Positions 29,799 through 58,333 of a stretch of 64,000 nt of DNA are shown here, one piece after another. The notes beneath the pieces were generated by a model that was given only the letters and a program-made list of their open reading frames with translations, was not told where the DNA came from and searched no databases. Where the stretch lies: the NCBI GenBank assembly GCA_032433595.1, contig JASWJB010000052.1:62001-126000 (forward strand), read 5' to 3'. Source of the DNA: Conoideocrella luteorostrata. Its lineage: Eukaryota; Ascomycota; Sordariomycetes; Hypocreales; Clavicipitaceae. Within the stretch, counting starts at the first letter, position 1. The number at the start of each line of letters is the position of its first letter. A program made the position numbers and the translations under genes.

Positions 29799-30074
29799 TA
29801 CCAAGAAAAATCACGTTGTATTTGCTATATTTCGCCGTGTTATTGGCGGGATCTGACCCAAACACGAGGTAGGACCAGTGAGCGTAAATTTTATGATATC
29901 AACTGTTTATTTGCTCAAATACTTTGTTCGCGCAGCCTTTGCATCACATCCCTGAAGAACAGTCCCGAACGAAAATGGTATGCATGGTCCCCCCTCAACA
30001 CCTTTCATTATGCGGGCGACTTGGATTCTGAATAAAACAAAAAACTCTATTCGCTTGTAACTAAACCCGGAATG

Positions 30075-30951
30075 CTACTCATTCTTCTTCAGCGAGCGAT
30101 CGGCAAACCGACGCTGGAAAAATGATGTCTCCATCTTACTGCAAGCCAAATCCCAATCCGTAGTCCACTTGCGGTAAAAAGGCTGGTAACCCAAAATGCC
30201 GCCCAACCAGCGGCCAACGACTACTCCGATTGCCATGGAGATGCTCTGGCCGAAAGGAACCCAAGGGGGAAGAGAAACGTATGTGCCGCCAGCGTCGAAT
30301 GTCTGTGTGCACAGGCAGAAAATTAGTTTCTATTTGCATAACCCTGGACGGCCAAATGACTGCGGGAAGGGAGAGACTTACCGAAAAGAGTTGGATAAAC
30401 GACAACTTCTCGCCATGCACTACAAACTGGTCTTGGTACTTGTACCAGTTCTCAAAGAAGACAGGATTAAGCTCGAAGATTTCGTCAGTCTTCTTCCCTG
30501 ACAAGAGGAACTTGACTACGGTGCCACCATCCTTTTGATCTGACAACGGCATGGGATAGGAACGGTGGTCGACAAACGGCTTGATGGGGTATCGGCCATC
30601 CTTGGGGTTCAGGACGATTTCTCTGCCTTCAATTTCTAGGCCCAATGTACCTTGGATGGATTCGATATACTCTTCCTGCATGTGGAAGTGCAGAGGCGGC
30701 TTCTTGACAAAAAACTCCTTGCCCTTTTCCAGATCGAGCGAAATTTCAAGGGCAAAGGAACGGTCTGGATGCGAGACGAGACGGCCCTCGACTGCTCCGT
30801 TGAGGCTAGGTATGAGGTGGATACATTAGCAGCTGTGAAGAAGCTTTGGCCACGACCTCGCGGAGCTTGGCTGGCCGACCAATTATCGTCAAACTTACAC
30901 TGTGACACGCGTGTCATTGTCCGTGTATCTCATTAATTTTGCGTCAGACAT
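30075..30951 (-). CDS. Cupin-fold protein with hydrophobic C-terminal part
   Basis: Exons 30899-30951, 30382-30805 and 30075-30302 agree in phase and encode 234 residues. The first half is a single small beta-barrel: PPLHFHMQEEYIESIQGTLG is the classic cupin motif 1 (metal ligands H, H, E), with a second motif less clear around PMPLSDQKDGG. The second half (VSLPPWVPFGQSISMAIGVV and onward) is hydrophobic and Gly-rich and may form one membrane or interface helix. Such proteins in fungal clusters act as cyclases, isomerases or dioxygenases; none of these can be chosen here. It starts divergently from the BBE oxidase gene and is convergent with the SDR. Confidence 0.78.
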
Positions 30952-35111: not shown

Positions 35112-36227
35112 ATGCCTTGCCAACTGGCCATTACTTCGATATCGCTAGGGCGAAGTGGCGCCGGCCACGACTTTGTCCACAAAATGAACGTGGCTCAGCA
35201 ATACGGATACACTGGAATCGAGCTGTTCCACGATGATCTGGCCACGATAGCGCAGCAGCTTCCCGGGGGTATGACCAGTCTAAACGAGCTGGAGGCTGCA
35301 CACATTATATATCGCATATGCCAACAACGAGGCCTCTCCATCATTTGCCTACAGCCGTTTTGGCACTACGAGGGCTTGCTTGACCGCAAGCAGCACGAGG
35401 CTCATATTGAGAAGCTCATGTGTTGGTTCCAGCTTGCTGCCGCCCTCAGAACCGACATGATCCAGATTCCCTCCAATTTCCTGCCCTCGGACCAGCTCTC
35501 TGTAGACCCCGACATCGCCGTTGCCGACTTGCGCAAGGTGGCGGACTTGGGACTGGCCCAGCAGCCGCCTATTCGCTTTGTCTACGAGGCTCTCGCCTGG
35601 GGCACTCGCTGTGACACATGGGAGGAGAGCTGGCGAGTCGTCCAGGAGGTGGACCGTCCGAATTTCGGCCTTTGCCTCGATACATTCAACATTGCGGCGA
35701 GGGTGTGGGCTGACCCAACCAGCCTGACTGGTTGCAACCCAGATGCCGACCGACTTCTGGACGAATCGCTCCAGAGAATGGTCGATACGATTGATGCCTC
35801 CAAGCTGTACTGTGTGCAGGTCATCGACGCTGAGCGTCTTACTGCTCCGCTAGTCGAGGGCCACGAGTTCTACGATGCAGCACAGCCCGCTCGCATGAGC
35901 TGGAGCCGCAACTGCCGTCTATTCTACGGCGAAAAGTCTAGAGGAGCCTTCCTGCCCATAGACAGAATCGCCAAGGCTATTTTCCACAACCTTGGTTACG
36001 AGGGCTGGGTTAGTATGGAACTCTTCAACCGCAGGATGGGCCATACAGATGCCGGTGTTCCACGTGAACTCGCCGCCCGGGGAGCGTCATCATGGAAAAG
36101 ATTGCTCTGGGATATGGACATGCAGACTGACTGCCAGATTCAGAACAGCTTTGTTTCCAGTGTCTCATGGATCTCAAAGAAGCCCAGCCAGCTTGAAATG
36201 CCGACGTTTGAACCTTTAATAATTTAG
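35112..36227 (+). CDS. 3-dehydroshikimate dehydratase
   Basis: Converts 3-dehydroshikimate to protocatechuate (3,4-dihydroxybenzoate). One exon encodes 371 residues, the usual length for the fungal qa-4/qutC type. It is a TIM barrel of the AP-endonuclease-2/sugar phosphate isomerase superfamily: GYTGIELFHDDL (about residue 35), CLQPFWHYEGL (about 80), IRFVYEALAWGTR (about 155), FGLCLDTFNIAARVW (about 185), YCVQVIDAERL (about 235) and GYEGWVSMELFNRRM near 300. The acidic and His metal ligands expected in these strands are present. In quinate catabolism this gene sits with quinate genes; none are here. Its neighbours are prenyl, methyl and hydroxyl transfer enzymes plus a DAHP synthase, which points to making an aromatic starter unit instead of degrading quinate. 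Confidence 0.93.
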   Translation: MPCQLAITSISLGRSGAGHDFVHKMNVAQQYGYTGIELFHDDLATIAQQLPGGMTSLNELEAAHIIYRICQQRGLSIICLQPFWHYEGLLDRKQHEAHIEKLMCWFQLAAALRTDMIQIPSNFLPSDQLSVDPDIAVADLRKVADLGLAQQPPIRFVYEALAWGTRCDTWEESWRVVQEVDRPNFGLCLDTFNIAARVWADPTSLTGCNPDADRLLDESLQRMVDTIDASKLYCVQVIDAERLTAPLVEGHEFYDAAQPARMSWSRNCRLFYGEKSRGAFLPIDRIAKAIFHNLGYEGWVSMELFNRRMGHTDAGVPRELAARGASSWKRLLWDMDMQTDCQIQNSFVSSVSWISKKPSQLEMPTFEPLII

Positions 36228-37042: not shown

Positions 37043-37937
37043 CTAATCCATAAGTCGGGTGATATTTACACCATCCCAAAGAGGGCAAAGCCAGTTCTCC
37101 AGGCGGTCCGTCTCCGTCACGATCCGGTTGTATTGCCGCAAAGCCAAAACGTCCTCCGATTTCCAGTACTCGGATCTGTGTGGCCCAAAGTTATATTGGC
37201 GCCATGGGTTATCTTCACTATCATCTGCCACAAAGCCACATCGCAGGACGTTATCGCCCACGATGAGGCCGCCCGGACGGAGCAGGCGGTTCTTGGACCC
37301 CGGCTGAGACGACTTGAGAATGGCTTTAAGATAGTCAGGGTAGCCCGACTTCTGAGCATCAATGAAAATCATATCATAAGGCTCGTCAGGAGCAATGGTT
37401 GGCAGGCTATGCAGTGACAGTGAGAAAAGACGTCGGAAGAAAAACTTTGGGGATTTGTTTGGGGACTAGGCGAGGGGAACGTACGTTTTTAGTGCGTCGC
37501 CGACAAGAACTTCAATATTTTGGATGCCGAGCTCCTCAAATGTCTCTTCCGCCTTCTTGGCAAAAGTAGGGTCGAACTCAAGACCAGTGACCTTGCCCTC
37601 AGGGCCGACTGCGTGACTCCACATCAGACTTGACAGACCAACGTAGACGCCTACTTCCAGGACTGTATCGGGTTCCTTGTTAGTTTGAGTTCTACTAATG
37701 TATGATTTGGGTTGGGTGCGCACTTCTCTTGGCTCCTACTGCCTTTGCCAGGAACTGCATGGCCTGCGCCTGGGAGACGGAGAGCATGTAGTTTGCAGTC
37801 TTGGGTAGCGTTTCACGAATGTGCGCATGGTAATCAACAATGCTCCTGGGGATCTTGGTGCTATGTGCTTTGGCGTATTCACCGATGCGCGTCCCAACAC
37901 GCTCATTAGGATACAGAATCGGGGAGTCTTCCTTCAT
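37043..37937 (-). CDS. Class I O-methyltransferase (catechol/caffeoyl-CoA type)
   Basis: Three exons (37724-37937, 37485-37662, 37043-37406) give 251 residues in phase. The acceptor splice at GATACAG was chosen because it restores ILEVGVYVGLSS, the SAM-binding motif I of this family. Further marks are VTGLEFDP, PYDMIFIDAQKSGY (motif with metal-binding Asp) and GGLIVGDNVL (metal-binding Asp-Asn). The fold and size match the Mg-dependent small OMTs that methylate catechols, soluble in the cytosol. Protocatechuate from the dehydratase gene next door is a catechol and is a reasonable substrate, giving vanillate or isovanillate; a later prenylated catechol is equally possible. The gene is convergent with the dehydratase. 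Confidence 0.9.
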
Positions 37938-39928: not shown

Positions 39929-40956
39929 TCAGACAACAACGTAGTTGGCCACCAGGCCAGCCACAATGGACGTTCCGGTAAGCCAGAATCCATTCGCAAA
40001 CCACATCCAGCAACTTGCCGGGTCCTTGAGGTCAACCAGGGCCACCATGGCGCCCACCGAAGACGCACATCCGCCAACTGTAATCAAGAAATACAAGGGA
40101 CCCATCTCGCCGTAGACGCCAGAGTAGTACAACAGCAGGGTCATAACCATGACAAGTGTCCATAAAAAGGGCTTGGCGTAGCCATTGATCAGAACCGCAA
40201 GGCTCTTGACGCCTACCTTCATGTCATCTGCCAGATCCTGATGTGCGTAGATGATATCGAACAGTATAACCCACAAGACAGACCCCAGCAGCAGGCAGAC
40301 GGTCGACGTGTCCGCCCATGGCTTCTCAACTCCCATGGCTGAACTGCCAATCATGATGCCCCAGGTCAGGCAGAAGCCGAGCACAACCTGCGGCAGATGC
40401 GTGTGTCGCTTGGCAAAAGGGTAGTAGATAGTGCCAATGATGGTTGGGAATGTAGCTATAGCCGTGTCGTACGGCAAGAGTAGCAGACAGGCAGCGGCTA
40501 AAGCGGCTTTGTGCAGGCAAAGATAAAGGCCGCTCTACGGCTGATTGCACCGCGCGGGATAGGTCGAGTCTTGGTGCGCTCAATCTGCGCATCAATCGGC
40601 GCGTCCACCAGGTCATTCCACGCATGGCTGCTGTTGTTGCAGAAAAGACTGCCCACCAAGAGGACTCCAGAAACATAGAGCACGCTCTCAATGGAGCCGT
40701 GTGTCATGCTTGCAGCGTGAATCACGCCAAACAGGTGAGGGAGGTAGATGAGGATGAATCCTGCTGGCGGACTCAGACGTGATAACTGAACGTACGGAAT
40801 CCATGCTTTTGGCAGACGGTTCACCCAACCGCCAGCGTGTACGCCTCCATATTGCTGGGAAAGAGGCTTCTCAACTGGAACGTCCAGAGACTTGGACGTT
40901 GGAGTTAGTGAAACTTCAGGAGGCTTCACTTGATGCAGCACTTGCGTTTGATTCAT
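39929..40956 (-). CDS. UbiA-family aromatic prenyltransferase with apparent frameshift
   Basis: Transfers a prenyl chain from its diphosphate to an aromatic acid in a membrane; relatives include ubiquinone COQ2. From ATG 40956 the frame runs to about 40508; the rest (from about 40507 to 39929) continues in another frame, and together they give about 342 residues. Motif 1 is NDLVDAPIDAQIERTKTRPIPRG, motif 2 is YAHQDLADDMKVGVKS; both Asp-rich Mg/diphosphate sites are intact, with about 8-9 membrane helices. At the junction the frame-1 text ends FIFACTK and then hits a stop, while the alternative frame reads ALAAACLLLLPYDTA. One added base in the ACAAAG run restores it. An intron (GTGCAATC...CTTTAG) is possible, but it would delete conserved helix sequence. 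Assembly error or inactivation cannot be told apart here. Confidence 0.85.
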
Positions 40957-41501
40957 TGTAGAGTGTAGAAGCTGCCGTTCAATTGTGGAAACGAAGGGAT
41001 CAATATAAAAATGCACGTATAATGATAGAGCTACATCAAATTTACGGGATGGAAGGCAGCTTTATCTTTTCTCTCCGAAGACAGGGATAGTGCAAGCCCT
41101 GATGACTTGATCTGAGACTTATATGCTTCCGTTCTCCTCGGCACAAAACTACCAATGTATATTAAAACGGGGATCCCCGAAAAAAGTGCTGTCTAGGGTA
41201 TCATGCCGTCTAAAAGCACAATAATGCCGTCAGCCGTGGCTGGCTAGACCCCTTCCAGGGGGTGCAAGAAACTGTTCGGTTTCGTCGGCAAACACCCCCG
41301 CGTGAGCATTAGTCCACAGCCTTGGCCAGCGGAGACGACCCACACATGCCATGTCAGACTAAATGGAATGTAGCATCTGTTCTACTCCTTCGCAGTGGCT
41401 AAATCTATTAGAGGGTTTCTTCCTTTCTTTCCAGACCTGAGAGCATAGCGAAAAAAGTAACTCTGTATTTACAATCTCTCACAGGACCGAGAGAAAGCAT
41501 C
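40957..41501. promoter_or_regulatory. Divergent promoter of UbiA and second P450 genes
   Basis: The 545 bp between the two start codons of divergent cluster genes. No specific site was recognised. Confidence 0.45.
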
Positions 41502-43374
41502 ATGGCTATCTTGTTGGACCGGGTAACTCAGGCAGGGGGCCAGTTTACTGTCCCCTTCGTACTTCTAGGGTTGAGTGTCCTGTTCATCGTGTATTCACGC
41601 ACATGTCGCGCACAGGTACCGACTCTCACAGAACTTGTTCCATTGTATAACACGTATCAATACCTGACAGATGTTGGGACATTCATGGACCGTGTCACGT
41701 AAGAAGCGCGCGCTGTACGCCACCATTCGTGTAAACAGTTGAGCTAACCTCATCACAGCGAAACGCTCAATGCACACAAGAGCAATCTGGTCAAATTCCG
41801 CATCGGCTTCAGGGATGCCTATATTGTCACAGGGCCTAAAAATGTTCAGAAAGTGTTTGGCCCACCAAACGTCGTGGACGGAAATTTTATCCAGCTCATT
41901 CTCATGGACAAGCACTGGGGAATGACCAAGGACGAGATAGGTAAATTTGCCAACGACAAGTCTGGCAGACTCAAGGACCCGGCACCTGGCAAGGAGGGCA
42001 CGCCCGAAAGCCATCGTTATTGGCTCGGCCATGATCGTCTTTATGCAGACTTTCTCACTAAACGTCACTTCTCGGACTCGCTGGCAGCCTCCTTTTACAA
42101 GCTTTTCTCGCAGCGGCTGGACCAACAGCCTCTGAATGAGTGGAGAACTGTCTCTCTGTTTGACCTTCTCAAGACAGGAATGGCCGAGGCTGCGGTTGTC
42201 TCCTTGTTCGGCTCAAAGATCATTGAGCTCAATGATGGCTTTACGAAAGCCTACTGGGATTTTGACCACATTGCAGGAACCCTGGTCTGGGGCTTGCCCA
42301 ATTGGATGAGACCCGGTCCTGTCCGAAAGCACACACGTCTTCATGAGATGACGAGGAAGCACATTGATTCCGCGTGGGAGCACTTCAATTGGGATGGACC
42401 CGAAGCGGAAACGGATTGGGAGCCGCATTTTGGCTCCCGCTTGTCCCGTGAGACTGCCAAATGGCTCCGGGAAAAAGGCATGTCGAACCATGCCATTGCC
42501 GGTCATACATTGGCCTCTCTATTTGGGTGAGTCGAATTGGAGAAACTAGATGATGTGGTATCATTTGCTGACCACCAATCACACAGTCTTAATGGCAATA
42601 CAGTGCCTGTTACGGCCTGGGCTCTTATGGAGATCATCAAAGATAAGGACCTGTTCAATGCGGTGCGCCAAGACGCGTTGCCGTGTTTTGAGACCAACCA
42701 GGAAACTGGAGAGCGCAGTGTCGATGCCCAAGAACTTATCTCAAGCCCCTTGCTGCAATCGATTTACGTCGAGACCATGCGTTTGCACGTGTCGTTCAAC
42801 GTGTCTCGAGAGGTTCTTCAAGACATCGAAATCGACGGTGTCATTGTCGGAAAGGGATCACTACTACAGTCTTCCTCACAGATCGCACACTACGAAGAGG
42901 ACGTCTGGGCTGTTGAGGGCCATCCTGCATCCGAGTTTTTCGCCCGCCGCCATATCAAGTATGTGTCTGTCGAGGACGACTCTGGCCATCTGACGAAAAA
43001 GGAGCAGTTCTCTATGAAGGGTCGACCCAGCTCATTCTTCCCTTACGGTAAGCACGCACGAACCCTTCCCCCAACGACAATGCTTACACATAGCGTCCCC
43101 GTCTTCATCATTCACCTGTTTTACAAGAATGCTAATGTGTTTCTGCTCGGCAGGAGGAGGCTATGTTATGTGCCCTGGGCGACATTTTGCTAAACAGGAG
43201 ATTATAATGGCAATTGCTACCATAGTAACTAAGTTTGATGTTGATTTCGTTGAGTGGGTAAACGAGGATGGAACGAAATCAGACAGGCCAGCCCAAGATG
43301 ATAAGAGATATGCTGGGTTTATAGCCATGTCTCCAGATCGGGAGATGAAGATTCGCTGGGCGAGGCGACATTAA
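41502..43374 (+). CDS. Cytochrome P450, CYP7/CYP8-like class
   Basis: Exons 41502-41698, 41759-42526, 42587-43047 and 43154-43374 join in phase to 548 residues. A membrane anchor (FTVPFVLLGLSVLFIVY) starts near residue 15. The I-helix reads SLFGLNGNTVPVTAWALMEI, lacking the usual acid-Thr pair and instead having Asn-Thr-x-Pro, as in vertebrate CYP7/CYP8 enzymes and their fungal relatives. ExxR is VETMRLH and the heme loop is FFPYGGGYVMCPGRHFAK with the Cys ligand. All structural residues needed to bind heme are intact. Relatives do hydroxylations or, without the acid residue, rearrangements. It is divergent from UbiA and upstream of the monooxygenase fusion, so it is likely part of the pathway, acting after prenylation. 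Confidence 0.92.
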
Positions 43375-44161: not shown

Positions 44162-47100
44162 ATGGAAACTCTGCGTGACTCATGGCCTCACGTTGGTCGT
44201 CAGGCCATCAAGCCTTTGAGTGTAATAGTAGTAGGGTCGGGCATCGGCGGACTGACTGCAGGTATAGCTCTTGCCCAGACCGGCCACCGCGTCACGATAT
44301 TTGAGAGTGTCCCGAAAATCATCGAGGTTGGCGCGGGCATACAGCTGGCACCCAATGCGTCACGTATTCTCCACAGACTAGGCGTCTTGCAGGAGGTGAT
44401 GAACCACGCTTCTGTCCTCACAAGAGTTAGCATCAGGTATCTGCAACCCTAACTCTGCAGGTGCGTTTCCTTCAGCTAACACAGTATTCAAGACGTTACT
44501 CTTCTGACAATGAAATCGGTACAACCCCCATGATGCCTTCCAACGGACACAGGTACGGCGCACCCATGGGCGTTATACATAGAGGAGATTTACAAAGAAT
44601 ACTTCTCAACGCAGCCAAGCAAAGCGGGTGTCAAATATTCACGCATCATACTGTTGTTGCGGTCGACCCGAGCTTCTCAGCTCGAGTTCAAGTCCATAAT
44701 CACAAGACTGACAAGGTCTTCTGGTGCTCCGGCTGCATGGTCATTGCCGCTGACGGCACCAAGTCTGTAATCAGAAAACAAATGGCGTTATCAAATGGAT
44801 ACAAAGACCAGCCCATGGAAACCTGCGATGCAGCGTACCGTCTACTAATCCCGAGAAAAAAGATTGAGCACAACCCAATGCTATTAGAGATGTTGGACCA
44901 GAACGTTGCAATGCGGTACATGGGACCAGGCGGCCACGTTATGGCATACCCATTGAAGAACAACTCTCTCTACAATATTGTTCTTCTGCATCCGGCAAAG
45001 CAAAGCCACCCAGTGGCTGGAGCCGGAGCGAAAGACTCCTGGACCAGTAAGGGCGACCGTCGAGAAATGCTGGACTTCTACAGCGGCTGGTCCCCGGCTA
45101 TCCGAGAATGGATAGAGCATGCAGATGAAGATATCTTGGAGTGGTCACTGTACTTGTATCCAAAGATACCGAAATGGGTTCAAGGCAGCGTCGCCCTAAT
45201 CGGCGATGCTTGTCATCCTATGCTCCCGTACGTTGCTCAAGGCGCCGCCAACGCAATAGAGGATGCAGTAGTGCTGGCTACAGCCCTGACATGTACGCCA
45301 GATGTCCAGCTTGCATTGAATCTATACGAGAAGATCCGAAAGGACAGAGGTGAAAAGATCGCGGCAAGTGCAACTGTAACGGCCAAGGTATTGCACCTGC
45401 CCGACGGCCCCGAGCAAATAGCAAGAGATGCTGCCATCAGGATAGCACACAAGGGAAGCGAGCACCCGGACAAATGGGGCAATGCGCACTGGCAAGACTT
45501 CATGTGGGGAGTGGATGTCATGAAAGATACAATCGATAGCTGGAATACGCTCGTAAAGAAAATGGCATTGGCAAGACGGCAGCAAAGCATGCAAAGGTCA
45601 TATTCCTATACTCTCTTTTTACGGCTCAACCGGTACTGGCCGCTCACATACCTCGGCGGCTTCTCGGCTACGCGTTCCAAGGAGAAGGGATTGAAAACCG
45701 TTACCGTGTCCCAAACGAAGATGGTTTCAAAGCAAGACCTCAGGTCGCCCAAGGGCTTACTGAGCCCGGTCAATTCATGCATCGCCAAGGAATCTAGCAT
45801 TCCACTGGACTGGGATATTTCGTCGTGGCGCTCCAAGCCTATTAAGCAAGATCCCAGCTATCCCGACGTCGCCAAAGTGTCATCGATCGTCGGCCAGCTA
45901 CAGCACCTTCCTCCCATCGTCAACCTGAACGAAATCCTCGCCCTCAAGAAAAATCTGCGCGACGTTGCCGAAGGAAAAGCCTTTTTACTCCAAGGTGGCG
46001 ACTGCGCCGAGATGTTTGAGTATTGTCGCCAAGACGACATCGAGTGCAAGCTCAAACTGCTCCTCCAAATGAGCATCGTTCTCGCCAAGGGTACCAAAAA
46101 GCGTGTGGTGTGCGTCGGGCGTATCGCAGGGCAGTATGCAAAGCCAAGATCCTCCCCCATGGAGGAAGTTGACGGCAAAGAGATGCCCAGCTTTAAGGGA
46201 GATATTCTCAATGGACATGCCAGCAACCAGCGGGAGATTGATCCCGACCGGCTACTCAGGTGAGCTTCCGCACACCACCCTGTCTGTTGTCGAACGCCGC
46301 AAGTTCCTAACAGAGTATTTTTAGAGCCTATTACCATTCAGCAGCAACTCTGAATCATATTCGTCACACCACTTCTTCCGGTATGGAAGACTTCCATCAT
46401 TCCCTAGACTGGGAACTTGGACGCGCTTCTGGCAAGTATCCAGGTGTCACCTCAAACATGCAGGATTCGTTACAAGCTCGGTGCGCCGAAAACTGTAGCT
46501 CAGAAAAACTAGAGCCGATGGAGTTCTACACCAGTCACGAAGGTCTACTTCTGGAATACGAGTCGGCGCTTACGCGCCCCTGGGTAAAGCAGACCTTACC
46601 AAAGGACACAACTCTCGGACCAGGGTCCAGGGAAAAGGAATTTTATACTACTTCAGCGCACTTTTTATGGATTGGAGACCGTACACGCCAACTTGATCAC
46701 GCACATGTGGAGTTCTTTCGTGGCATTGCGAACCCCATTGGAGTCAAAATCGGCCCTATAACGCGCCCGTCTGATATCATCCGTCTTGTACGCGTCTTGA
46801 ATCCATCCAAGGAGCCCGGGAAAATCACACTCATCACACGTCTTGGTTCTTCAAAGGTACCCTCCCTGCTCCCCGCCCATATCCGCGCTGCTGAGGACTC
46901 CGAGTACCGCCGCTGCATCGTCTGGCAATGCGACCCGATGCATGGCAATGGAGTATCAACCTCAGCGGGTATCAAAACGCGTCATTTCAACGACATCTTC
47001 CAGGAGCTCCAAGAGACTTTCCATGTTCATAGAGAGGAAGGAAGCTACCTCGGAGGCTTGCACCTTGAGCTCACTGGGGATGCCGTTACCGAATGTGTAG

Positions 47101-47222
47101 GAGGAAGTGAGGGTTTGTCCGAGGACGACTTAACCAAGAACTATAAGTCATTCTGTGATCCAAGGTTGAATAATACTCAATCTCTTGAGATGGCGTGTCT
47201 TTTCGCAGATTTATATTCTTAG
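44162..47222 (+). CDS. Fused FAD monooxygenase and class II DAHP synthase
   Basis: Exons 44162-44436, 44493-46259 and 46325-47222 (phases consistent) give one 979-residue protein. Residues 1 to about 450 are a group A flavin monooxygenase of the salicylate hydroxylase type: VVGSGIGG (FAD, residue 24), AADGTKSVIRK (about 176) and GDACHPMLPYVAQGAANAIEDA (about 329). After a 70-residue linker, about 530-979 is a complete plant-type DAHP synthase: DWDISSWR, FLLQGGDCAEMF, RAYYHSAATLNHIR across the last intron, HFLWIGDRTRQLDHAHVEF, CDPMHGNG (about 884) and HLELTGDAVTECVGG. No stop codon separates the halves. DAHP synthase makes the first shikimate intermediate; the monooxygenase could decarboxylate and hydroxylate a benzoate. 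Met 502 (45721) could start a separate protein, but the first half would then lack a stop. Confidence 0.88.
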
Positions 47223-48506: not shown

Positions 48507-51020
48507 TTACCAAAGCCGCCCTGAAATTTCTTTAACATCGCTACACCTGGTCGTCTCCCACAGACCACCCCCAACACCCACCGCCACCGTCGTGTCCTCC
48601 TCCCGATGCTCTTCACAAACACTGGGGCACTCCTCTCCCTGGCTCTCGCAATAAAACCTCGAAACTTCAAATGTATGATTCGACCCCGGCGCCACGCAGG
48701 TGACCTCTGTTCTAGTCGCCTTGAGCTGTGGAAAACACCCATCGCACCAGTTACAACCAGGGTAGTCTAGCGACGTATTCGCTGTAGCGAGACGAATGAT
48801 TTTGCGGCAGAGCTTGTTGGAGCAGCAGACAGTCGGGTCCATCGCCGGCCATGTCTCTCGGAAAGAAAAGCTGCCCGAAATTATCATTTTCTTGTTGCTG
48901 AGGAGGCCGAGATTGCGGCAGGTTTCTTTGCAGGTGTGCATGGCAAAGAAGAATTTGAAGCCGTCTTCGTTGAGGTTTGTCTTGCCCAGCTTGAAACGTT
49001 CTGTGTCACGGGTTTGAATGGCTGGGTCGGTCAAGGAGTAACAAGCGCCTTGGAGGTCTGTGACGAGGAAATGGCCCCATGACCGCTCAAAGGTGAAGTG
49101 CGAAAACGCTTGCGCAATCTCATTCAACGGATCGTCGTCGTCGTCTAGTACGTACGCCCCATTGCTGTTGTACTTGACGTACTCGCCATCGATGAATGGC
49201 TCCAGCGATAGACGTCCCCTTGAAGCGTGCGATTTGTCTTCCAAGCAAAGGGTTGTGATGAAATCAATTGGCTGAGAGGACTTGACAAGACCATTGAACT
49301 CGAGCGCAAAGGCTTTGCAGAGAGCCTGCATGCGCATGTCCTCAACCAAATTGGCGAGCGACTCCTCGGGATCTTTGAAAGATTTGAGGACAAATCTGCT
49401 GGTTGTCGAAGCAGGCCGGGCATACGCTGCCACACGAACGGATCCTTGGGCGAATGGCTTGGAGCGGGCCGTTATGTTGAGCTTCACTAGCCCAAGCTTA
49501 ATGTTCTCATCGTTGTCCATCATGGCATTTAAAGTATCAGCACTATGAACCGCGAGGTCAATGCAATAGCCCTCGACGGAGAGAGTTTGATCCAACCACC
49601 CGGGGGTATTCCAACGCGGGGGGGCCGTCTCGAGCGGGATGTCGGTAGCAGCGCCGTCTTCGACGATTGCGGTGAGACGTGGACTTTTGACGCCGCGAGG
49701 GCCGGAGGCGCGGTCAGTGCTGCTTTTGCTGCGGCTGAAGGCCAGCGATAGACGGTTTGCGGTGCGCGAGACGGAGGCGGTGATTGTGCTGACAACGAGA
49801 TGGCGGAGAGTGTCATACGTAGTGCCCAGTTGCATCTCCTCGAAAAGCAGCCCGGTGCCTGCAGCTGTCTTCTTGGCTCGTGACTTGGCCAAGATGAGCG
49901 AGTCGGCTGTCCTGGTGTGGTAGGCGTTCTTGTGGTGAAGCTTGGCGTCTGCACCAGCCGAGGCAGTGGTGTAGACTTGGCTGAACTTGAGAGCCATGCG
50001 GTCGGTGGACGAGTTGACGCGGAGGAGAGCGTAATTGACCTTGAGCTTGACCAATTGCTCGAGCAGATTCTCATGGGTCAGACCGTGAGGCTCGCTAGCT
50101 GTGCGATAATAATAGTCATCCTTCTCCTTGAAGTCATGCAAAGTGTGACCGTGGGGAGGAGCATCAGCGATGTGCACAAGACAGCGAGTCTGCTGCTGCC
50201 AAGAGGCGTTGATGGCCTGTTTTATCCCACCCAGTACATCTTCTGGCATATCACTGCCACCGCTTGCGCTCAGTGTAGACAAGAAGTCATGCACGTCGGC
50301 CACAGAGGTGGTAAAGTCAAGAAACTCAATATTCGGGTCGTCGTCATGATCCTTGTACCCAACCACGGCAATTCGCACGCTTGATTCATTAAGAAACGCA
50401 TCCTTGATCTGACTGACAATTGATCGAACCTGGTGCTTTGCCGCTTCAATGTAACTACTCATGGATAAGGTTGTATCCATCAAGAACAGCAAATCGGTCG
50501 AACAGGATTCTCTGAATAAATCGGACTTGCCGCGGGGCCGCATCGCAGCGTTTGCGCGGTCGACTTCAGACTTTAATTCACGGAGTCGGCTCTTTGCATC
50601 GGCGGCAGAGATGGCGCCGCCGTCTTTGACCTTGGTCGATGCTGCGGACGGCTTGGTCACGGAGGCATAATTGCTCCGGTACGAGGGCGGCTGGCCCCTA
50701 TCAGTAGTAGTAGGGACGGCCCCGCGGACGATGGATGCTCGGAGTAGGTCGTCGGCGGCAGAAGAAGTTGCCGTCTTGGAGGAGTCTCTGGTGCGAGTGA
50801 TGGTTGCTGAGGATGGCGGGGGGGCAGATGGCGTCTTCGAGATTGACGCTGCCGCCGCCGCCGCCGATGCTGCTGCTGCCGAGGTGTTTAGCTTGCTGGT
50901 GAGCGATTGACGGAGGAGGTCGTCTGCGAGTTTGCGCATGCTCTCTTTCGAGGAACCCTTGCCGGCCACGCTGGCGCGCGTGTAAGACGCCGAAGAAGGA
51001 TCACCAGACGATTTCTTCAT
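48507..51020 (-). CDS. vWA domain/alpha-kinase protein (VwkA-like)
   Basis: An uninterrupted frame of 837 residues from ATG 51020. The first 160 residues are low-complexity (Ala/Ser/Thr-rich, including a run of Ala). A von Willebrand A domain follows: STDLLFLMDTTLSMSSYI carries the MIDAS DxTxS metal site, then IRIAVVGYKDHDD and GGSDMPEDVLGGI. From about residue 490 there is an atypical alpha-kinase domain (MHCK/eEF2K family): FVLKSF (ATP lysine), LEPFIDGEYVKYNSNGAYV, FTFERSWGHFLVTDLQG, LTDPAIQT, GKTNLNEDGF and the zinc-binding HTCKETCRNL. A Cys-rich tail follows. The layout matches Dictyostelium VwkA-type kinases, which act on myosin or membranes. Targets in fungi are unknown. It is not obviously part of the cluster. 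Confidence 0.9.
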   Translation of the reverse strand: MKKSSGDPSSASYTRASVAGKGSSKESMRKLADDLLRQSLTSKLNTSAAAASAAAAAASISKTPSAPPPSSATITRTRDSSKTATSSAADDLLRASIVRGAVPTTTDRGQPPSYRSNYASVTKPSAASTKVKDGGAISAADAKSRLRELKSEVDRANAAMRPRGKSDLFRESCSTDLLFLMDTTLSMSSYIEAAKHQVRSIVSQIKDAFLNESSVRIAVVGYKDHDDDPNIEFLDFTTSVADVHDFLSTLSASGGSDMPEDVLGGIKQAINASWQQQTRCLVHIADAPPHGHTLHDFKEKDDYYYRTASEPHGLTHENLLEQLVKLKVNYALLRVNSSTDRMALKFSQVYTTASAGADAKLHHKNAYHTRTADSLILAKSRAKKTAAGTGLLFEEMQLGTTYDTLRHLVVSTITASVSRTANRLSLAFSRSKSSTDRASGPRGVKSPRLTAIVEDGAATDIPLETAPPRWNTPGWLDQTLSVEGYCIDLAVHSADTLNAMMDNDENIKLGLVKLNITARSKPFAQGSVRVAAYARPASTTSRFVLKSFKDPEESLANLVEDMRMQALCKAFALEFNGLVKSSQPIDFITTLCLEDKSHASRGRLSLEPFIDGEYVKYNSNGAYVLDDDDDPLNEIAQAFSHFTFERSWGHFLVTDLQGACYSLTDPAIQTRDTERFKLGKTNLNEDGFKFFFAMHTCKETCRNLGLLSNKKMIISGSFSFRETWPAMDPTVCCSNKLCRKIIRLATANTSLDYPGCNWCDGCFPQLKATRTEVTCVAPGSNHTFEVSRFYCESQGEECPSVCEEHREEDTTVAVGVGGGLWETTRCSDVKEISGRLW

Positions 51021-53435
51021 CGTAGTACCTGTGTTACGTAGAGTATAAGACCTAATTAAAGCTACTGGAGTAACCTTTAATAGGCATACAATTTTGCTCC
51101 AGCGGTTGAGCGGTTAATTGTTCCAACAAACTTGTGCTCTTCAATGAAGTAATGTGCCGTTGAGGAACACGAAGCTCAACCTCAGTCCACAGCGACGGGA
51201 TCCCACGCTCATATCAAGCAATCCGTCCACGACAGCCTAGTCCAGCCAGCGCCTGCTCTAGATGCACAAAGCTGCCCGGCTCAATCATGTACGGGGGTGC
51301 ATTTACACAACTCCCCCCAGTCCGACCGACGGTTGCCTGAGAACCGCCAGCCCAGTCACTGTCGCGGCCTAACCACGTTGCCCGGTCCGCGCCACCGTCA
51401 GAACCAATGTTCAAGAGGCTGCCGAAAGCTTATCATGCCCTAGCGACCGACCGCTCGCTGATTCTGATTAGCACCCCCACCGAGTATATGTATACGCAGC
51501 CCCGTCTGATAGTTTGTCCAGGGTCCGTCAATCATCGTGTCTTGCGGCTGAGGAGTTGGGATGGCGTTGAAGCTGACAGCGGGGCCTCCCGCGCCAAGCC
51601 CCAGAGAATTGACAATTTTGGCAACTGCGCCATGGACGATCAATCAGGTAGAGATGACTACAGAGAGCGAGTGAGCTACATCGCATGAAAGACTTCCATA
51701 GGCAGCCTCCCTACGTAAGCCCCGCAACGACCAAATCGCACACAACATTGCTGCGGCACAATGCTTCACCATAGAGAGGTATCTGTGTGTGCTGAAGTGC
51801 TGTGCGCCTAGGTAAGCCAGTTTCCCCACTCCACCGGATAGGATACACCATACAATACGTCTTTGCATGACGCTAACCACAGGGCGAACCAAGGCGAACC
51901 AAGGCGAACCAAGACGAACCAAATACATGGTAGATATTGACCAATATTTGAGCTGCGGGCACTGGGCACTGCGGGTAACTAGCCCTGCTGCCCACTTGGT
52001 TTCTTACCAAATTGGCCACTGCTCAACCCGTTAACCCACAGAACAAGGCGAGAAAACAGAAAACCACTGTTTTCATAGCATTAGATCAACACTGTGGTGA
52101 TGTGCTGCTACCGGCAAAATGGCCTTCTCGAATCTCTATTGCATGTGACTGCTTGTACAAGTGTCGCCAAACATTCATGTTTACCGGCTCCATGTTCCCC
52201 AGTGCGCCAGCTCACAAGAGCTACGTGCACCCTATCTAACCCGTTAGGTCTGCGGGGGGTGACAATGCGATTGATTACTGACGATTCTGCCGTCGCTGAG
52301 GCCCCATCTCTGGTGACCTAACGGAGCAATAAAATGCTGTCCTCACCACACTCACTACTTCGTAGTCGCTTGAGACATCCGAGTCAAACCTTGAAAAAAA
52401 AAGAAGGGGGGGCGTTGGGCGGGGGCCAGGACTTTTGGAAAAGTATCAATCAGGCAATAGACAGATTCGAGACATACAGATATTCTGATGGAGGCGGCCA
52501 ATCATGGGGAACGAAGTACCACACCCTCCTGCCCACCGCGCAGAGGCGCCCGTGGCTTACAGGCCGAAGATGCAATCAAGGCCAATCATGGACAGTGAGG
52601 CAGCACATTTGTGACCAGCAATGTTTAGCAAAGCCAGTGACGATAGCACAATCACGGCCCAAGCAAACATATGGTTTTGTATTCCGCCACATGGCTGCGG
52701 GCTTTATTGCCTGTTTCCATCCATTCTCCGTCCTCAGCCCGTCTCTACCTCTGCTCGTCTGCTTGCGCTATGCAACAAACAAGGTCACACCCACACACAG
52801 CCGATTCTCGGGTAGAAGGCCTTTATTTGTCAAATTGTTTTTGGTATGACAGCTACGATGCCTGACACGCCATACATAGTATACTCCGTACGGAAGCCTA
52901 CAAAGCGGTGCATACCATACGACTCCACGGAACGTATACCCTACCTGGAAGCTACTGATGTGCCCAGCACCGCGGTAGCACGCTGCATGATCTGATCCTG
53001 CTTACGCTATGAATGAGCCACCGAGAAGATGTGAATATTGTTCAAGCAGAGGGTTTGGAGGGTGTTCTGGCCTGGCCTTCTCGCCTCCAATCACAGGCCT
53101 TGAATATAGCGACGGCAGTTGTGCCATGTTTGCTGGCCGCACGGCTGACGCAACCAACGTTGAAAATCGCTCAAGGCTCGAGCACACTTGAGTTGCAAAT
53201 AGGGACATAGGAGTTTACAGAGACTTGATTAAAAATGTGCATCATTGCATTCATATTACTTTATAGAGCAGCTACAATAAATTCATTCGTCTGACATTTT
53301 CATGTGGCAAGGGACTACTACTACGACGACCTGGTCGCCTTCTAGTCCTTCCATTGCATTGACAACAGTCCGCAGATCAAACGATCAACTACATCCCTTA
53401 ATCCAAGGAATCCTATGCTAAACGCCTCCAAAACC
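51021..53435. other. Intergenic; nothing identified
   Basis: About 2.4 kb between the divergently placed kinase start and the end of the next minus-strand gene. Apart from a 10-bp tandem repeat (51881-51920) I see only short frames with low-complexity composition. No gene is proposed. Confidence 0.4.
51881..51920 (+). repeat. Four tandem copies of a 10-bp unit
   Basis: AGGGCGAACC, AAGGCGAACC, AAGGCGAACC and AAGACGAACC in direct succession. A small minisatellite with no known role. Confidence 0.8.
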
Positions 53436-56400
53436 CTATATGCTATCCACATTCGTATCGTGAAAACCGTCATGCGCTAACCACTTCTCAGCCAGTTCCG
53501 GCGGCATCCCACAATATCCCTCCGGCTGCTTAACACCTCTTCCCGGTTCCTGCGGTCTGTACATTCGGTCGTCCAATTTACCAGTATCTCGCAAAATCCG
53601 GATCATCCTTTCCGACCCGTTGACCTCTTTATCTAAACTTAAGAGGGAACTAATGTACTTACTAAGCGAGTACACAATGCCCTCTCGGTCGGTGTACAAA
53701 TACCGATCGTTTCGTTTGGCATCTTTGGCTACCTCGAGGGCTTCCAGCATGGCTTCTAATATGTCAGGTCCGTTGTCGATGGCGAAATGGAGTACCGTTT
53801 TTTGCCGCCTGCGCCAGGAGAGATCTGTTCGCTGTGCGAGCAGCTTCATTGTTCGTTTTTGTCTGTCTTCGAATTTTCCATTTGCGTTAGCGACTTTGCA
53901 CCACGGACGCGCCTTGGAGTAACAAGCCAACGCAAGGGGAATCATCATTTCAAAGTTTTCCCCCGGATGGTCCGCGCTGTGGCGCTTGAGAAGCCACTGA
54001 ACGAAATCTGGCAGCGCAAGCAGAGCTGCTGTGTGTAGCGATTCATCGTCTACATCTTCACCACACCGTAGTGCGCTGTAGGCCTCAAAATTGCCGAGGT
54101 ATAATGCTGCCTGGCCGAGACGGGGGTCATGATCGAATATTTTTTCGAAATTTGGCTCTGCTGGTTTCTGGCTAAGGTACGAGAACGAACGACGTGGGAT
54201 GACAGAAGTTGTGATTGTACTCCTGTGCTGCTTGAGAAGGGCCTCGAGGACGGAAGTTCGGCTCGGATCGAGCATGCAAGCAAATGCTGCTGAGACTTGC
54301 GACTTGGGCGTGAGGTATAGAGGTTTCGCTAACCAATGTCAGTGCCGGATGCGATTGAGGAGCATGAAATAAGCTTGCCTTCTTGCCCTCGAGCGATTAG
54401 AGCCAGTAGCGTGCGGTTCGAGATCTTCTTAACCTGGAACAACGCCCACAGCAAAGGCGTGACTGCCTCAACCGCCCAATGCTTACACAACGACCATTTC
54501 AACAACTTCCCTGCCGGTGCTCCGTACCCCAGCAACTTCTTTACCAGTGACCCTCCATCTGGGAATTTGAGCATAGCCTCGAACAACAACTTCGGATCTT
54601 TGATGCGTGCCGCCGACGGTGCGAGTGTTTCCATGCACATGCCCAGCCACTTGACAACGTCCTTCTCCTGAGAGCAACGCTCTAACAGAGCACGAATGAC
54701 TGTATCAACTTCTGCGTAGAGACACATTGCCTTGAAAGCAGTGCCATTTCCAGCGTCGCACGCCAATGTGAAACATTTTGCCCCGTCTTCATTGGGATTG
54801 GCGCCATGCGCAAGCAGAAATTGGATTGCGGCAATGTCTTGACCATCCTTGAGTGTGTCGATGAGTGCCTGGCCTAGAGCCTCCTTGGTAATATTATGAT
54901 TCAGTAGACAGCGATAAATACTTAACTTCGCCGCAGGCTTCACTGCTGAAGAAGTACGAGCCAGTTGAAACGCAGCCTCGGCAGCATTCCCATCCTTGAT
55001 GTGCTTGGCCAGCAACTCCATAATTTCCGTACCAGCTTTCAGTCTGAACGAGAGCTTCAGCGGTAAGAATTCCTCGAATTCTACTTCAGCGCCGTGTTCA
55101 AGTAAAAGTTTTGGCAAGGCAATATCAGTTAGGCCTGCGTCTTCTAACGCGCTAACGAGGGCTTCTGAGACGGGGTGTCCTCGAATCTTCCCGCCGCTGA
55201 GCATTGTCTCGTAAACCCAGAGACGACGATCGGCCTTCATCGGCGTCACGCGCGCGTGGACGAACAATTTCCACATGGCATTATCGGCTTTGCAGTTGAG
55301 GACCAACAGTTCGAACAGTTCTTTGCTGCTCTTAGCGAGCGCGGCTTGAAGGTCCCGGAGGCTGACTTTGACACGACGTGCGATAAGTAGTTTCGGGAGG
55401 AGAATTGAATCGCTGAATTGATTAATGCTGTTGTAGAGCAAGTCTGTCATTTCGGCCGTTTTGAGTCCGGTCTCGGAGGCGAGGAGGAGGTCCAGTACGG
55501 CTTCTTTTTGTGACTGAACCAGCTTTGGCGATGCCAACGCTGCAAAGCAGGACCTGCTAATGGAGGATCCATTGGGGCGGTAGGATAGGAGAGTCTCGAG
55601 TACTGCGGTGGAGCTGACTGACATTGCGGCAGCAATTCTTAGAGCCTTGCCACCATTCGCATCGACGGACGCTCCGCGCCGCAATAGAAGCCGCAGACCT
55701 ATCTGATCCCCACCCTCCGAAAGAGCCTCCATGGTCTCCTCAAATAACGTATCGGACTGGCCAATCTCCACGAAGCGGGCTTTGTCTAAAAGCAAAGTCA
55801 TCATATCAAGCTGAACGTGCCGGGGCATCGCGTTATGCGTAGCAATGAACGCAGTCCGCATGGAGCTACTACTCAAACTAGAAGACGAAAGGATTATCCT
55901 AAGAAGGGAAGCATTATGCTCTTCCACAGCTATCCGGGGAATTGCTCCATTGTGAATATTTACATCGAGGCCGTGGCGCAGGAAGCATGGGATGATTGAA
56001 GTCAAGTGTTGGCTTCCCTTGAGCTGCTCTGGTGTGCATACCGCGTTGACTGTGGCTGCGCTCACAGAGGCTGCTGACTCGAGGACTAGCTCGAGGGCTT
56101 CGGCATTGAAGCTGCTCGCGATAAAAATGGTGGAGAGAAGTCTCTGCAAGCTAACTGGCTGCAGTGGACACGCTTTGCAGAGAACGGCGAGCATGGAGTA
56201 ATTTGAATTGGCCCAAGCTGCGATGTAGGCGCCACCTTGAGAGTGGTTTGCATTTGTGCCATGTTTGATCAGCAGACGCGCAATGTCCTCAGTGCGAGGT
56301 CTGTCGGAGCCGGCGACCAGGATGAGGGTTCCGCCCAACGGCGGTCCTCCCGCTCCGTGTTGTAGCAGGAGTTCGATGATGGAGTATGTCACATCATCGC

Positions 56401-58333
56401 CGTGCTCTGAAATCCGAGCAAAGGCCAGCGGCACAGCTTCGGACACAAGGGCGGCATGTGGAGATGCTTCGCAGAGGAGCCTGATGACGGCGATATTGCC
56501 TTGCTGGATGGCGATCTGGAAGACGTTTCGCCCACCATCGCTGCCGACGTGAATCAAGATTTTGTATTCGAGCATGATTCGGATGAGTTTGAGGTCGGGA
56601 TTCGATGACTCAACTGCGCAGACAAGCGCACTAACAAGGGCCACTTTCTTGACGCCTTTGTTGGCGAGGATCCGGACTACTTGCCGTCGAATGGCGTTGT
56701 CGGTAATGTTCATCGCCACGGGCAGCACCGGCGAGAGTTGCTCGCTGCTGATGTTCTTCTGTAACAAGGTCTGCAGCATCTCAATGTCCATAGTATCGAG
56801 CGTAGCCCTAATTGCAGCGGCCGACTCGAACGAGATCAACGCGCCCATTTCCAGGAGCGCATCGACAACCCGCCGACATTTCTTCTTCACCGCGCAGACG
56901 AGCTTCCGGTCCAACGCTGGGCCCTGTAGACTCTTTGACGCATCAGCGAATATGCTGAGAAAGCGGAGCATGTCGTCCTCTGACGCAGACTCTGGGACGA
57001 ATGACACCAGCCTAGATGCCTCATCAGATGTAATATTGGTATAAGCCATGATTTCCAAAACGGGAAAGTCCATCCTTGCCACCACTGCTTGGATGGAGAT
57101 TGATGGACGGATATCGGCGCTAACGAGAAGTCTAATCATAGGAAGTCGTCCCTCGAGAATACTCTGGTTTATCTCACGCCGTAGAGCGTCCCCATTTCTA
57201 AGTAGACCGACTTGGTTGAGTAGAGAGTAGAGAGTATATCGTGTCTGCTGGTCCGCGATGACGGAGACACGCTGACATGCTTGCATAGCGATATCCTCAT
57301 GCTCTACACGATCGCCCGTGGGGCTCAGGAAGCATGCAGTGTCTTTACTGGCCACTCGCTTGCACGTCGCTAGGTAAGCGAGAAGCACTGCAACCGCGGC
57401 GGTGCTCTTCGCCTCGAGCTCTTTGAGGAGGAGCTGTCCGCTCGCGATCCACGAGCAATGGTCCACGCATTGGAGCAAAATTTTTGGTGGCCTCCTCCCC
57501 TCAGCAGCGGCTGTAATCTCCGCCTCGAGGCAGTACTGCCAGTCCTCGACATTCATTCCATTCGGCGCCGACAGGAGCAGCTTCACGACGTCAATGTCGC
57601 CTCGCTTCACGTATTCACGAATGAGGTCTCTGTTCATGGAGAGGATTGCGGCACCGAAACTGACCAGGATGTACACAGAGTTCATGTCCCGCTTTTCAAG
57701 AGCAACCTTGAATGCCTGGTTCATCAGCGCCTGTTCTGTACCGAGTTGGCACATTAAGCGGATGTACTCTGTGTTTCCTTGCTGGATAGCAACCCCTAGC
57801 CAATACGCCATGCCATGGGACGACGAGGTAGACCGGCGAAATATGCTGGATTGTCGCTTTTGAAGCTTGCTGTCGTGGAAGTGCCCCCATAGCTCATCCA
57901 GCGAATGCAAATTCTCCACGGACGAGAGGATTGCGTATGCGACGCGTATATCAGGGAGTGGATTCAAGGCAAGTAGAGCGTCGAAGGCTTTGCCGACTTC
58001 GTGTTTTGTGAAGGTCCATTTTCCTTCGTCGAGTCTTAGATTTTTTCGGCTAGGAATACGCAGCAGATGGCGTTTTTGTTGGTCGGGTTGGCGGTAACCT
58101 GGATCGCTCGTACGTGCCCATACGAGCCATGTCCTCGCGGTGGCACGATGTTCGTCCGTGACGAGAGCTTCAAAGTCATAGTCGTCGGGTCTGGCGAGTC
58201 GGACAAGCGGGTCGGGAGGGGAGAGGCCGGCGTGGTCGAGGAGGGTCGCGAGTTTGGTGTCGCTGGGGGTGGCGGTGGGAGTGAGGATTGAGCCGACAAT
58301 CGTGCTCGTAAGGGAGTCATCGTTGCTGTCCAT
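53436..58333 (-). CDS. Large helical-repeat (ankyrin-like) protein
   Basis: Two exons (54334-58333 and 53436-54289, intron GTTAGC...TCTCAG, phase conserved) encode 1617 residues from ATG 58333. Apart from the N-terminal 130 residues, the whole protein is built of degenerate units of about 30-35 residues with ankyrin-like phrases: LLLQHGAGGPPLGG, LLIKHGTNANHSQGG, LLLRRGASVDANGGKAL, LLLEHGAEVEFEEF, FLLAHGANPNEDGAKCF and KLLGYGAPAGKL. These form a scaffold for protein binding. No catalytic, NACHT or heterokaryon-type domain is seen; the last 280 residues hold no repeat unit that I recognise. Such solo repeat proteins in fungi are often former ends of NLR-like immune receptors, but no such domain lies upstream here. 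Function unknown. Confidence 0.85.

What the first reader, a model, noticed from the sequence alone, without database searches (positions are those of the whole stretch)
44162..47222. Single gene joining a flavin monooxygenase to a class II DAHP synthase
Seen: one open frame runs from a complete group A flavin monooxygenase through a linker into a complete plant-type DAHP synthase, with phase-consistent introns in each half and no stop between. Known: DAHP synthase is the entry to the shikimate pathway, and salicylate-hydroxylase-type enzymes can decarboxylate and hydroxylate benzoates. Inference: one polypeptide carries the first step that makes the aromatic carbon and a late step that modifies it. 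I do not recall this domain pair. If real, it would be a dedicated precursor-supply fusion, possibly escaping feedback control of the primary enzyme.
Basis: partly seen in the sequence, partly recalled or inferred. Interest (0 to 1): 0.88.

Follow-up and report, generated by a model that had tools for sequence, protein, structure and literature searches.

The report
Fungal fusion: first-step and late-step enzymes
In a scale-insect fungus one gene encodes a single protein that joins the enzyme opening the aromatic (shikimate) pathway to a late enzyme that reshapes aromatic acids, and its pathway-opening half keeps its catalytic residues while residues where tryptophan would switch it off are changed, which suggests a built-in precursor supply for one natural product.

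Summary
The fusion is real. Three exons (44162-44436, 44493-46259, 46325-47222) encode 979 aa: a group A flavin monooxygenase, an ~80-residue linker and a complete class II DAHP synthase; the join lies inside one exon. NCBI's Conoideocrella luteorostrata protein is identical, and 7 of the other 86 hits carry both domains in this order. The first half's nearest solved structures are decarboxylative 1-hydroxylases (VibMO1, vanillate 1-hydroxylase, GsMNX1). The DAHPS half shares an intron position and phase with the genome's other class II enzyme. It keeps 47 of 48 columns invariant in 65 standalone enzymes; the one lost is the Ala192-equivalent of the mycobacterial tryptophan site. The Lys123-equivalent is Cys in 7 of 8 fusions. 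Neighbours (dehydroshikimate dehydratase-like, O-methyltransferase, UbiA, P450) suggest a prenylated-hydroquinone pathway. Best reading: a tryptophan-desensitised precursor supply tied to a decarboxylative hydroxylase. No activity was measured. Against it: the neighbouring UbiA frame is broken here, the DAHPS half is degenerate or lost in six relatives, and the wider divergence of the tryptophan-site segment is not exceptional for this protein among all 65 controls.

The parts
44162..47222 (+). fusion gene, 979 aa, exons 44162-44436, 44493-46259, 46325-47222
   Evidence: identical to NCBI QQS21_003837
44162..45561 (+). monooxygenase half (about residues 1-448): GSGIGG at 25, GDACHP at 329; VibMO1/MNX1 type
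45562..45804 (+). linker (about residues 449-529); residues 472-528 pLDDT under 50, a predicted helix runs to 479; inside exon 2
45805..47222 (+). class II DAHP synthase half (residues 530-979); C596, H887, E929, D959 at the metal-ligand positions (ligand identity recalled for the M. tuberculosis enzyme)
46111..46113 (+). Cys632 at the place of M. tuberculosis Lys123, which salt-bridges the tryptophan carboxylate
   Evidence: role from passages of PMC4851294
46386..46388 (+). Glu702 at the place of M. tuberculosis Ala192 (tryptophan site); the only invariant column lost
   Evidence: role
46260..46324 (+). intron 2, phase 2, same position and phase as in the class II DAHPS paralogue on contig C41
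41502..43374 (+). cytochrome P450 (start and exons chosen by eye from the frames)
39929..40956 (-). UbiA prenyltransferase; two overlapping frames (40498-41061 and 39929-40534), frame broken where they overlap; the NCBI model skips about 28 residues present in five relatives
37043..37937 (-). O-methyltransferase (Methyltransf_3); Pfam run on the last 130 codons only, start chosen by eye
35112..36227 (+). 3-dehydroshikimate dehydratase-like TIM barrel (AP_endonuc_2; NCBIfam QuiC 85 bits, far below its cut-off of 1200; PDB 5hmq 63 bits)

Best explanation
A single bifunctional protein for an aromatic meroterpenoid pathway. The C-terminal DAHP synthase condenses PEP and erythrose-4-phosphate to feed the shikimate pathway; it comes from a duplicated hypocrealean class II enzyme that was fused, kept its catalytic core and lost residues by which tryptophan would shut it down. 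The cell's own enzymes carry DAHP to dehydroshikimate or chorismate. The clustered dehydratase-like gene would draw dehydroshikimate to protocatechuate (or chorismate gives 4-hydroxybenzoate); UbiA prenylates the acid; the N-terminal flavin monooxygenase then replaces the carboxyl group by a hydroxyl to give a prenylated hydroquinone that P450 and O-methyltransferase modify. Fusing both halves ties precursor supply to the pathway in expression and stoichiometry. Shown by sequence: one reading frame, both complete domains, residue changes, neighbours, relatives. Inferred: both activities, the loss of tryptophan control, the substrates, the order of steps and the product.
For: Architecture. First half nearest to vanillate 1-hydroxylase, VibMO1 and GsMNX1 by sequence and fold. 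Unfused homologues with 64-69% identity lie within one or two gene numbers of UbiA genes: F66182_890/891 and DL768_005468/005470. The DAHPS half keeps 13 of 13 chosen active-site residues and 47 of 48 invariant columns; the one lost is the tryptophan-site Ala; in leave-one-out controls the median standalone enzyme keeps 48 of 48 and the lowest 46 of 59. The Lys123-equivalent is K or R in 64 of 65 standalone enzymes and Cys in 7 of 8 fusions; with seven further DAHPS rows that my length filter had dropped, 70 of 72 are K/R and 71 of 72 Ala. Precedent: PA1901, a type II DAHPS of the phenazine cluster insensitive to aromatic amino acids (passages of PMC6435475).
Against: UbiA next door is frame-broken in this assembly, so the pathway may be dead in this strain. 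The DAHPS half has lost catalytic residues in Lecanicillium saksenae (30 of 48 invariant columns kept) and Cordyceps militaris, is truncated in Beauveria brongniartii, a remnant in Cordyceps fumosorosea and in the unnamed P0220, and undetected in Cordyceps javanica, so it is dispensable somewhere. Divergence of the whole tryptophan-site segment is a weak argument: 43 of 65 standalone enzymes also diverge more inside it at p under 0.05, and 8 of 65 show a larger drop than the window protein. Asperpentyn supplies its acid from phenylalanine by PAL. Tryptophan control of the fungal paralogue was not tested; the site is mapped by alignment to M. tuberculosis, and the Ala192 contact is through the backbone. 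The fused FMOs are not one clade in the best tree, though one clade is not rejected (p-AU 0.07-0.11). In B. gryllotalpidicola UbiA and fusion share a contig length but are 25 gene numbers apart.
Confidence: 0.64

Rival explanations
1. The DAHPS half is a passenger on its way to becoming a pseudoenzyme or scaffold; only the monooxygenase half matters.
For: Degenerate, truncated, remnant or undetected DAHPS halves in six relatives that keep the monooxygenase half (P0004, P0007, P0008, P0010, P0013, and P0220, itself a partial row); UbiA frame broken in the window.
Against: In this species and in B. gryllotalpidicola 47 of 48 invariant columns and 13 of 13 active-site residues are kept although about 36-41% of all aligned positions differ from the paralogue. 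Random decay would not spare the core and strike a tryptophan-site residue.
Confidence: 0.22
2. The fusion is a dedicated supply enzyme, but the acid is made through chorismate and 4-hydroxybenzoate, or comes from phenylalanine, and the dehydratase-like neighbour is not part of the pathway (a variant of the best explanation, not exclusive of it).
For: VibMO1 acts on 3-prenyl-4-hydroxybenzoate and AtyG on its enyne derivative eutypinic acid; asperpentyn uses PAL (passages). The dehydratase-like protein lies far below the QuiC cut-off and has a 51% paralogue elsewhere in the genome.
Against: The dehydratase-like gene lies within the same 12 kb, and a vanillate 1-hydroxylase is the closest solved sequence of the monooxygenase half.
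Confidence: 0.35
3. The monooxygenase half is catabolic (vanillate or 4-hydroxybenzoate breakdown) and the fusion has no biosynthetic role.
For: Vanillate 1-hydroxylase and GsMNX1 come from wood-rotting fungi (their catabolic role is recalled).
Against: A DAHP synthase partner makes aromatics rather than degrading them; the gene sits with UbiA and P450, and unfused homologues lie near UbiA by gene number.
Confidence: 0.07
4. Gene-model or assembly artefact: two separate genes.
For: A Met exists at 502 (45721); no transcript evidence was available.
Against: One exon spans the join; seven further database proteins carry it; no Met in the B. gryllotalpidicola linker.
Confidence: 0.02

Closest known systems
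VibMO1 and AtyG (decarboxylative flavin monooxygenases of vibralactone and asperpentyn clusters)
   Same: Group A FMO fold; VibMO1 (8gsm) is among the three nearest solved structures; UbiA and P450 neighbours as in the aty cluster (passages)
Type IIB DAHP synthase PA1901 of the phenazine cluster (Pseudomonas aeruginosa)
   Same: Class II DAHPS devoted to secondary metabolism and insensitive to aromatic amino acids (passages)
   Different: PA1901 lacks helices alpha2a-alpha2b; the fusion keeps that segment with a 5-residue gap and changed residues, and is fused to an FMO
Class II DAHPS paralogue, contig C41 (478 aa; housekeeping role assumed)
   Same: 64% identity, same intron position and phase
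   Different: Standalone; has Arg at the Lys123 place and Ala at the Ala192 place
3-dehydroshikimate dehydratase QuiC
   Same: TIM barrel match of the neighbour gene
   Different: Far below the model cut-off; function not shown

Membership tests
Class II DAHP synthase | Full-length DAHP_synth_2 domain over the Pfam cut-off | tested here: met
   PF01474 1-438 of 438, 594 bits, cut-off 27
Class II DAHP synthase | NCBIfam equivalog TIGR01358 score over its prokaryotic cut-off of 614.7 | tested here: inconclusive
   517 bits; standalone fungal enzymes also fall short: paralogue 568, Thelonectria 565; fusions P0002 456, P0004 257
Class II DAHP synthase | Metal and substrate residues | tested here: met
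   13 of 13 chosen positions, 47 of 48 invariant columns; identity of ligands recalled
Class II DAHP synthase | DAHP synthase activity | not testable with these tools
   needs assay
Type IIA (tryptophan-regulated) | Basic residue at Lys123 and Ala at Ala192 of the tryptophan site | tested here: not met
   Cys632 and Glu702; roles from passages of PMC4851294
Type IIB (PA1901 type) | Absence of helices alpha2a-alpha2b | tested here: not met
   segment present with a 5-residue gap
VibMO1/MNX1-type decarboxylative 1-hydroxylase | Sequence and fold nearest to this group | tested here: met
   8x38 243 bits, 8gsm 239, 8r2t 209; next 8rqh 156; fold ranks
VibMO1/MNX1-type decarboxylative 1-hydroxylase | Decarboxylation plus 1-hydroxylation | not testable with these tools
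   needs assay
UbiA-type meroterpenoid cluster (aty-like) | UbiA prenyltransferase gene, intact | tested here: not met
   UbiA present but frame broken in this assembly
UbiA-type meroterpenoid cluster (aty-like) | P450 and VibMO1-like FMO beside UbiA | tested here: met
UbiA-type meroterpenoid cluster (aty-like) | Cupin epoxidase and SDR | tested here: inconclusive
   weak Cupin_2 match in 30136-30825, E 0.12, below cut-off; adh_short in 28218-29618, E 9e-15

The most novel reading that the evidence does not exclude
[quoted passage not shown] the fusion arose in Hypocreales and its DAHPS half was later degraded or lost several times, so it records both the making and the unmaking of a hard-wired precursor supply.
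Probability: 0.53. Interest if true: 0.78.

Novelty: new variant of a known kind. Interest (0 to 1): 0.67.

Why it matters
Secondary metabolism competes with amino-acid synthesis for aromatic carbon. Bacteria solve this in phenazine clusters with an unregulated DAHP synthase. Here a fungus appears to have reached the same end by another route: fusing the entry enzyme to a pathway enzyme and changing tryptophan-site residues while sparing the catalytic core. It predicts which few residues carry tryptophan control in fungal class II enzymes, offers a natural part for making aromatic products, and marks a kind of cluster without PKS or NRPS that mining rules may miss (the last point is my inference).

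Tried and rejected
Intron 1: other splice choices were rejected by eye for the wrong phase; the NCBI model agrees with the one kept. My first exon-3 start was one base off and gave stops; corrected. Separate-gene and assembly-artefact readings were rejected (see full report).

Segment test. My first control for divergence of the tryptophan-site segment used only 8 of 65 standalone enzymes (three of the eight had p under 0.05). On checking all 65, 43 have p under 0.05 and 11 under 1e-4; P0002 and P0003 show a larger drop than all 65, but the window protein and P0004 are exceeded by 8 of 65 (the six largest listed drops are rows only about 48% identical outside; plants where named). Among the 27 standalone enzymes with 58-72% identity outside, the inside identity is 35-61%, the window protein's 36%. 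I therefore no longer lean on the segment, only on the single residues, and lowered the best explanation from 0.66 to 0.64, the novel case from 0.55 to 0.53, and raised the passenger rival from 0.20 to 0.22.

FMO tree: I expected the fusions to form one clade; the best tree needs 3 changes, and trees holding them together are 15-18 log units worse but not rejected, so one origin is possible, not shown. DAHPS tree: fusions group with weak support, 60/83, with very long branches for P0004 and P0007.

Literature: 10 searches. By titles and abstract starts none of the listed papers treats this domain pair; some searches were aimed at it. The library is open-access only and the lists were capped, so absence there is weak. 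One search used poor terms and led nowhere. One AlphaFold job was run: mean pLDDT 74.8, pTM 0.49, so domain placement is not interpretable. The cupin-like neighbour is a weak match and is not claimed. No dN/dS was done: no relative's DNA was fetched. Synteny in other fungi rests on gene numbers and shared contig lengths only.

Full report
What is there. The gene at 44162-47222 (+) has three exons (44162-44436, 44493-46259, 46325-47222) and encodes 979 residues without a stop. Residues 20-207 are the best FAD_binding_3 stretch, and 532-975 match the whole class II DAHP synthase model. The join, codons 448-530, lies inside exon 2; it is open in 109 of 5000 mononucleotide shuffles. The same 979-aa protein is in NCBI as QQS21_003837 of Conoideocrella luteorostrata, a Clavicipitaceae pathogen of scale insects whose draft genome (Illumina, SPAdes) was annotated by funannotate with protein evidence (PMC12352038, first of two parts read).

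Is it a true fusion? Of 87 proteins found with the whole query (only the 7993 candidates sharing most words were scored), 8 carry both Pfam domains in this order: the query itself, Beauveria gryllotalpidicola (974 aa, 58%), B. thailandica (883 aa), Lecanicillium saksenae (955 aa, 46%), Cordyceps militaris (642 aa) and three unnamed fragments, P0005, P0006 and P0009. P0005 and P0006 end at the intron 2 position and P0009 two residues past it, as single-exon readings would. The Met502 that could start a separate DAHPS has no counterpart in the B. gryllotalpidicola linker. Different species and gene callers give the same architecture.

Origin of the halves. The genome holds one other class II DAHPS (contig C41, 478 aa, modelled) and, by two adjoining matches, apparently one class I DAHPS gene. 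The fused domain is 64% identical to the C41 protein, and their introns share position and phase (phase 2, in the codon before Ala-Tyr). In a tree of 30 DAHPS rows the fusions group together weakly (60/83) and lie with the C41 paralogue, Thelonectria and one unnamed row, apart from the 19 other rows at 99/97; the root is not inferred. The monooxygenase half has unfused homologues, among the best 120 of 5258 hits: Tolypocladium (70%), Monosporascus (69%), Fusarium (64-65%). By gene numbers some lie near UbiA genes: F66182_890 (UbiA) and 891 (FMO); DL768_005470 (UbiA) and 005468 (FMO). In the FMO tree (38 rows) the fused and remnant rows are not one clade in the best tree, but one clade is not rejected (p-AU 0.088, 0.073 and 0.108 for three versions).

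The monooxygenase half. The best solved sequences are vanillate 1-hydroxylase (8x38, 243 bits), 8gsm (239) and 8r2t (209), then a gap to 156 bits. The fold search names 8gsm VibMO1 and 8r2t 4-hydroxybenzoate 1-hydroxylase GsMNX1. VibMO1 carries out oxidative decarboxylation of prenyl 4-hydroxybenzoate, and AtyG does so on eutypinic acid in the asperpentyn cluster, though not on the simple prenyl acid (passages of PMC12356543 and PMC11574748). I infer the same reaction class here; the substrate is unknown.

The DAHPS half. All 13 chosen active-site positions are kept in the window protein and in B. gryllotalpidicola, and all 10 visible ones in B. thailandica. Sixty-five of the 77 hits P0011-P0087 matched a DAHPS profile over more than 300 positions in one stretch and served as the standalone set; 12 were dropped, of which seven do carry DAHPS. 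In these 65 plus the paralogue 48 columns are invariant. The window protein keeps 47 and B. gryllotalpidicola 47; each loses only the Ala at the place of M. tuberculosis Ala192 (A to E, A to N). B. thailandica keeps 42 of 44, with the same Ala lost. In leave-one-out controls the median standalone row keeps 48 of 48; the lowest are 46 of 59 and 48 of 54. Placement is plain in the window protein (SSGMEDFH against ASGIADLH) and gapless from the preceding anchor in the two Beauveria rows, where a shift by one residue, which would restore an Ala, cannot be excluded. In M. tuberculosis the indole of bound tryptophan hydrogen-bonds the Ala192 carbonyl and its carboxylate salt-bridges Lys123 (passages of PMC4851294). 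The Lys123 place is K or R in 64 of 65 standalone enzymes and Cys in 7 of 8 fusions, Arg in the eighth, P0009. With the seven dropped DAHPS rows added, K/R holds in 70 of 72 and Ala in 71 of 72; the row that breaks both, P0085, is itself a predicted fusion with an aldo-keto reductase domain. The segment around these sites (paralogue 171-226) is 36% identical to the paralogue inside against 66% outside in the window protein, and 25/63%, 17/60% and 13/44% in the three other long fusions, but 43 of 65 standalone enzymes also diverge more inside at p under 0.05 and 8 of 65 drop further than the window protein, so I rest on the single residues. Loss of tryptophan binding is inferred, not shown; the NCBIfam cut-off for the family is missed by the fusion and by the standalone fungal enzymes alike.

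Decay elsewhere. L. saksenae keeps only 30 of 48 invariant columns and has lost the Cys, His and Asp metal-ligand positions; C. militaris has lost the Cys and ends early; B. brongniartii is truncated. C. fumosorosea keeps a remnant of profile 208-269 (E 9e-5). The unnamed, partial P0220 ends in 28 residues that match the DAHPS C-terminus, ungapped score 69 against at most 45 in 2000 shuffles. C. javanica shows no DAHPS match and is instead joined to a beta-lactamase domain in its gene model. Thus the entry half is dispensable in some lineages, yet the window species is among those with an intact core.

Neighbours. Upstream lie a P450 (about 41502-43374), UbiA (39929-40956, minus), an O-methyltransferase (about 37043-37937, minus) and a dehydroshikimate dehydratase-like TIM barrel (35112-36227). 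The UbiA reading frame changes between two overlapping frames at 40498-40534. Fourteen single-intron GT-AG models (32-152 nt) would give an open frame, but each removes coding sequence from a region that has no gap in the five relatives fetched; the NCBI model drops about 28 residues. Intact homologues exist. Either the strain's pathway is broken or the assembly is wrong there.

Mechanism. Best reading: the fusion makes DAHP under pathway control and outside tryptophan control, the common shikimate enzymes carry it on, and the same protein's first half decarboxylates and hydroxylates the prenylated acid. The chemistry of supply (protocatechuate by the dehydratase-like neighbour, 4-hydroxybenzoate by chorismate, or phenylalanine) is open.

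Novelty. A pathway-dedicated, amino-acid-insensitive class II DAHPS is known from the phenazine cluster (PA1901, passages of PMC6435475; also passages of PMC5493349), and decarboxylative FMOs are known. Their covalent union, and desensitisation with the helices kept, appeared in none of the listings of my ten literature searches of an open-access library; databases name the protein hypothetical or aldolase. I rate it a new variant of a known kind.

Noticed in passing
39929-41061 (-): UbiA prenyltransferase gene with a broken frame between 40498 and 40534; the NCBI model bridges it by an intron that removes about 28 residues present in five relatives
   Followed up: partly
P0010 (Cordyceps javanica, 909 aa): The same monooxygenase joined to a beta-lactamase domain (PF00144) where the DAHPS half would be; a new fusion or a gene-model join
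   Followed up: no
P0085 (unnamed, 879 aa) and P0084: P0085 joins an aldo-keto reductase domain to a class II DAHPS; it has Val at the Lys123 place and Arg at the Ala192 place, and P0084 also has a non-basic residue (Val) at the Lys123 place: another DAHPS fusion with changed tryptophan-site residues
   Followed up: partly
P0220 (unnamed, 358 aa): Monooxygenase that ends in a 28-residue remnant of the DAHPS C-terminus: a footprint of a lost fusion
   Followed up: yes
48507-51113 (-): Alpha-kinase joined to a von Willebrand A domain, 868 aa single frame
   Followed up: no
15857-21182: Two adjacent minus-strand frames with molybdopterin, Mo-co dimer, Cyt-b5 and FAD/NAD domains (nitrate-reductase-like, recalled) beside an MFS transporter
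   Followed up: no
30136-30951 (-) and about 28700-29800 (+): Weak cupin match and a short-chain dehydrogenase; a cupin protein and reductases make epoxyquinones in the asperpentyn cluster, so they may belong to this pathway
   Followed up: partly
54329-58345 (-): 1338-aa ankyrin-repeat protein in one frame
   Followed up: no
7652-9292 (-): Protein with a T5orf172/MUG113 (GIY-YIG-like, recalled) domain next to a fungal-type protein kinase at 5060-7375
   Followed up: no
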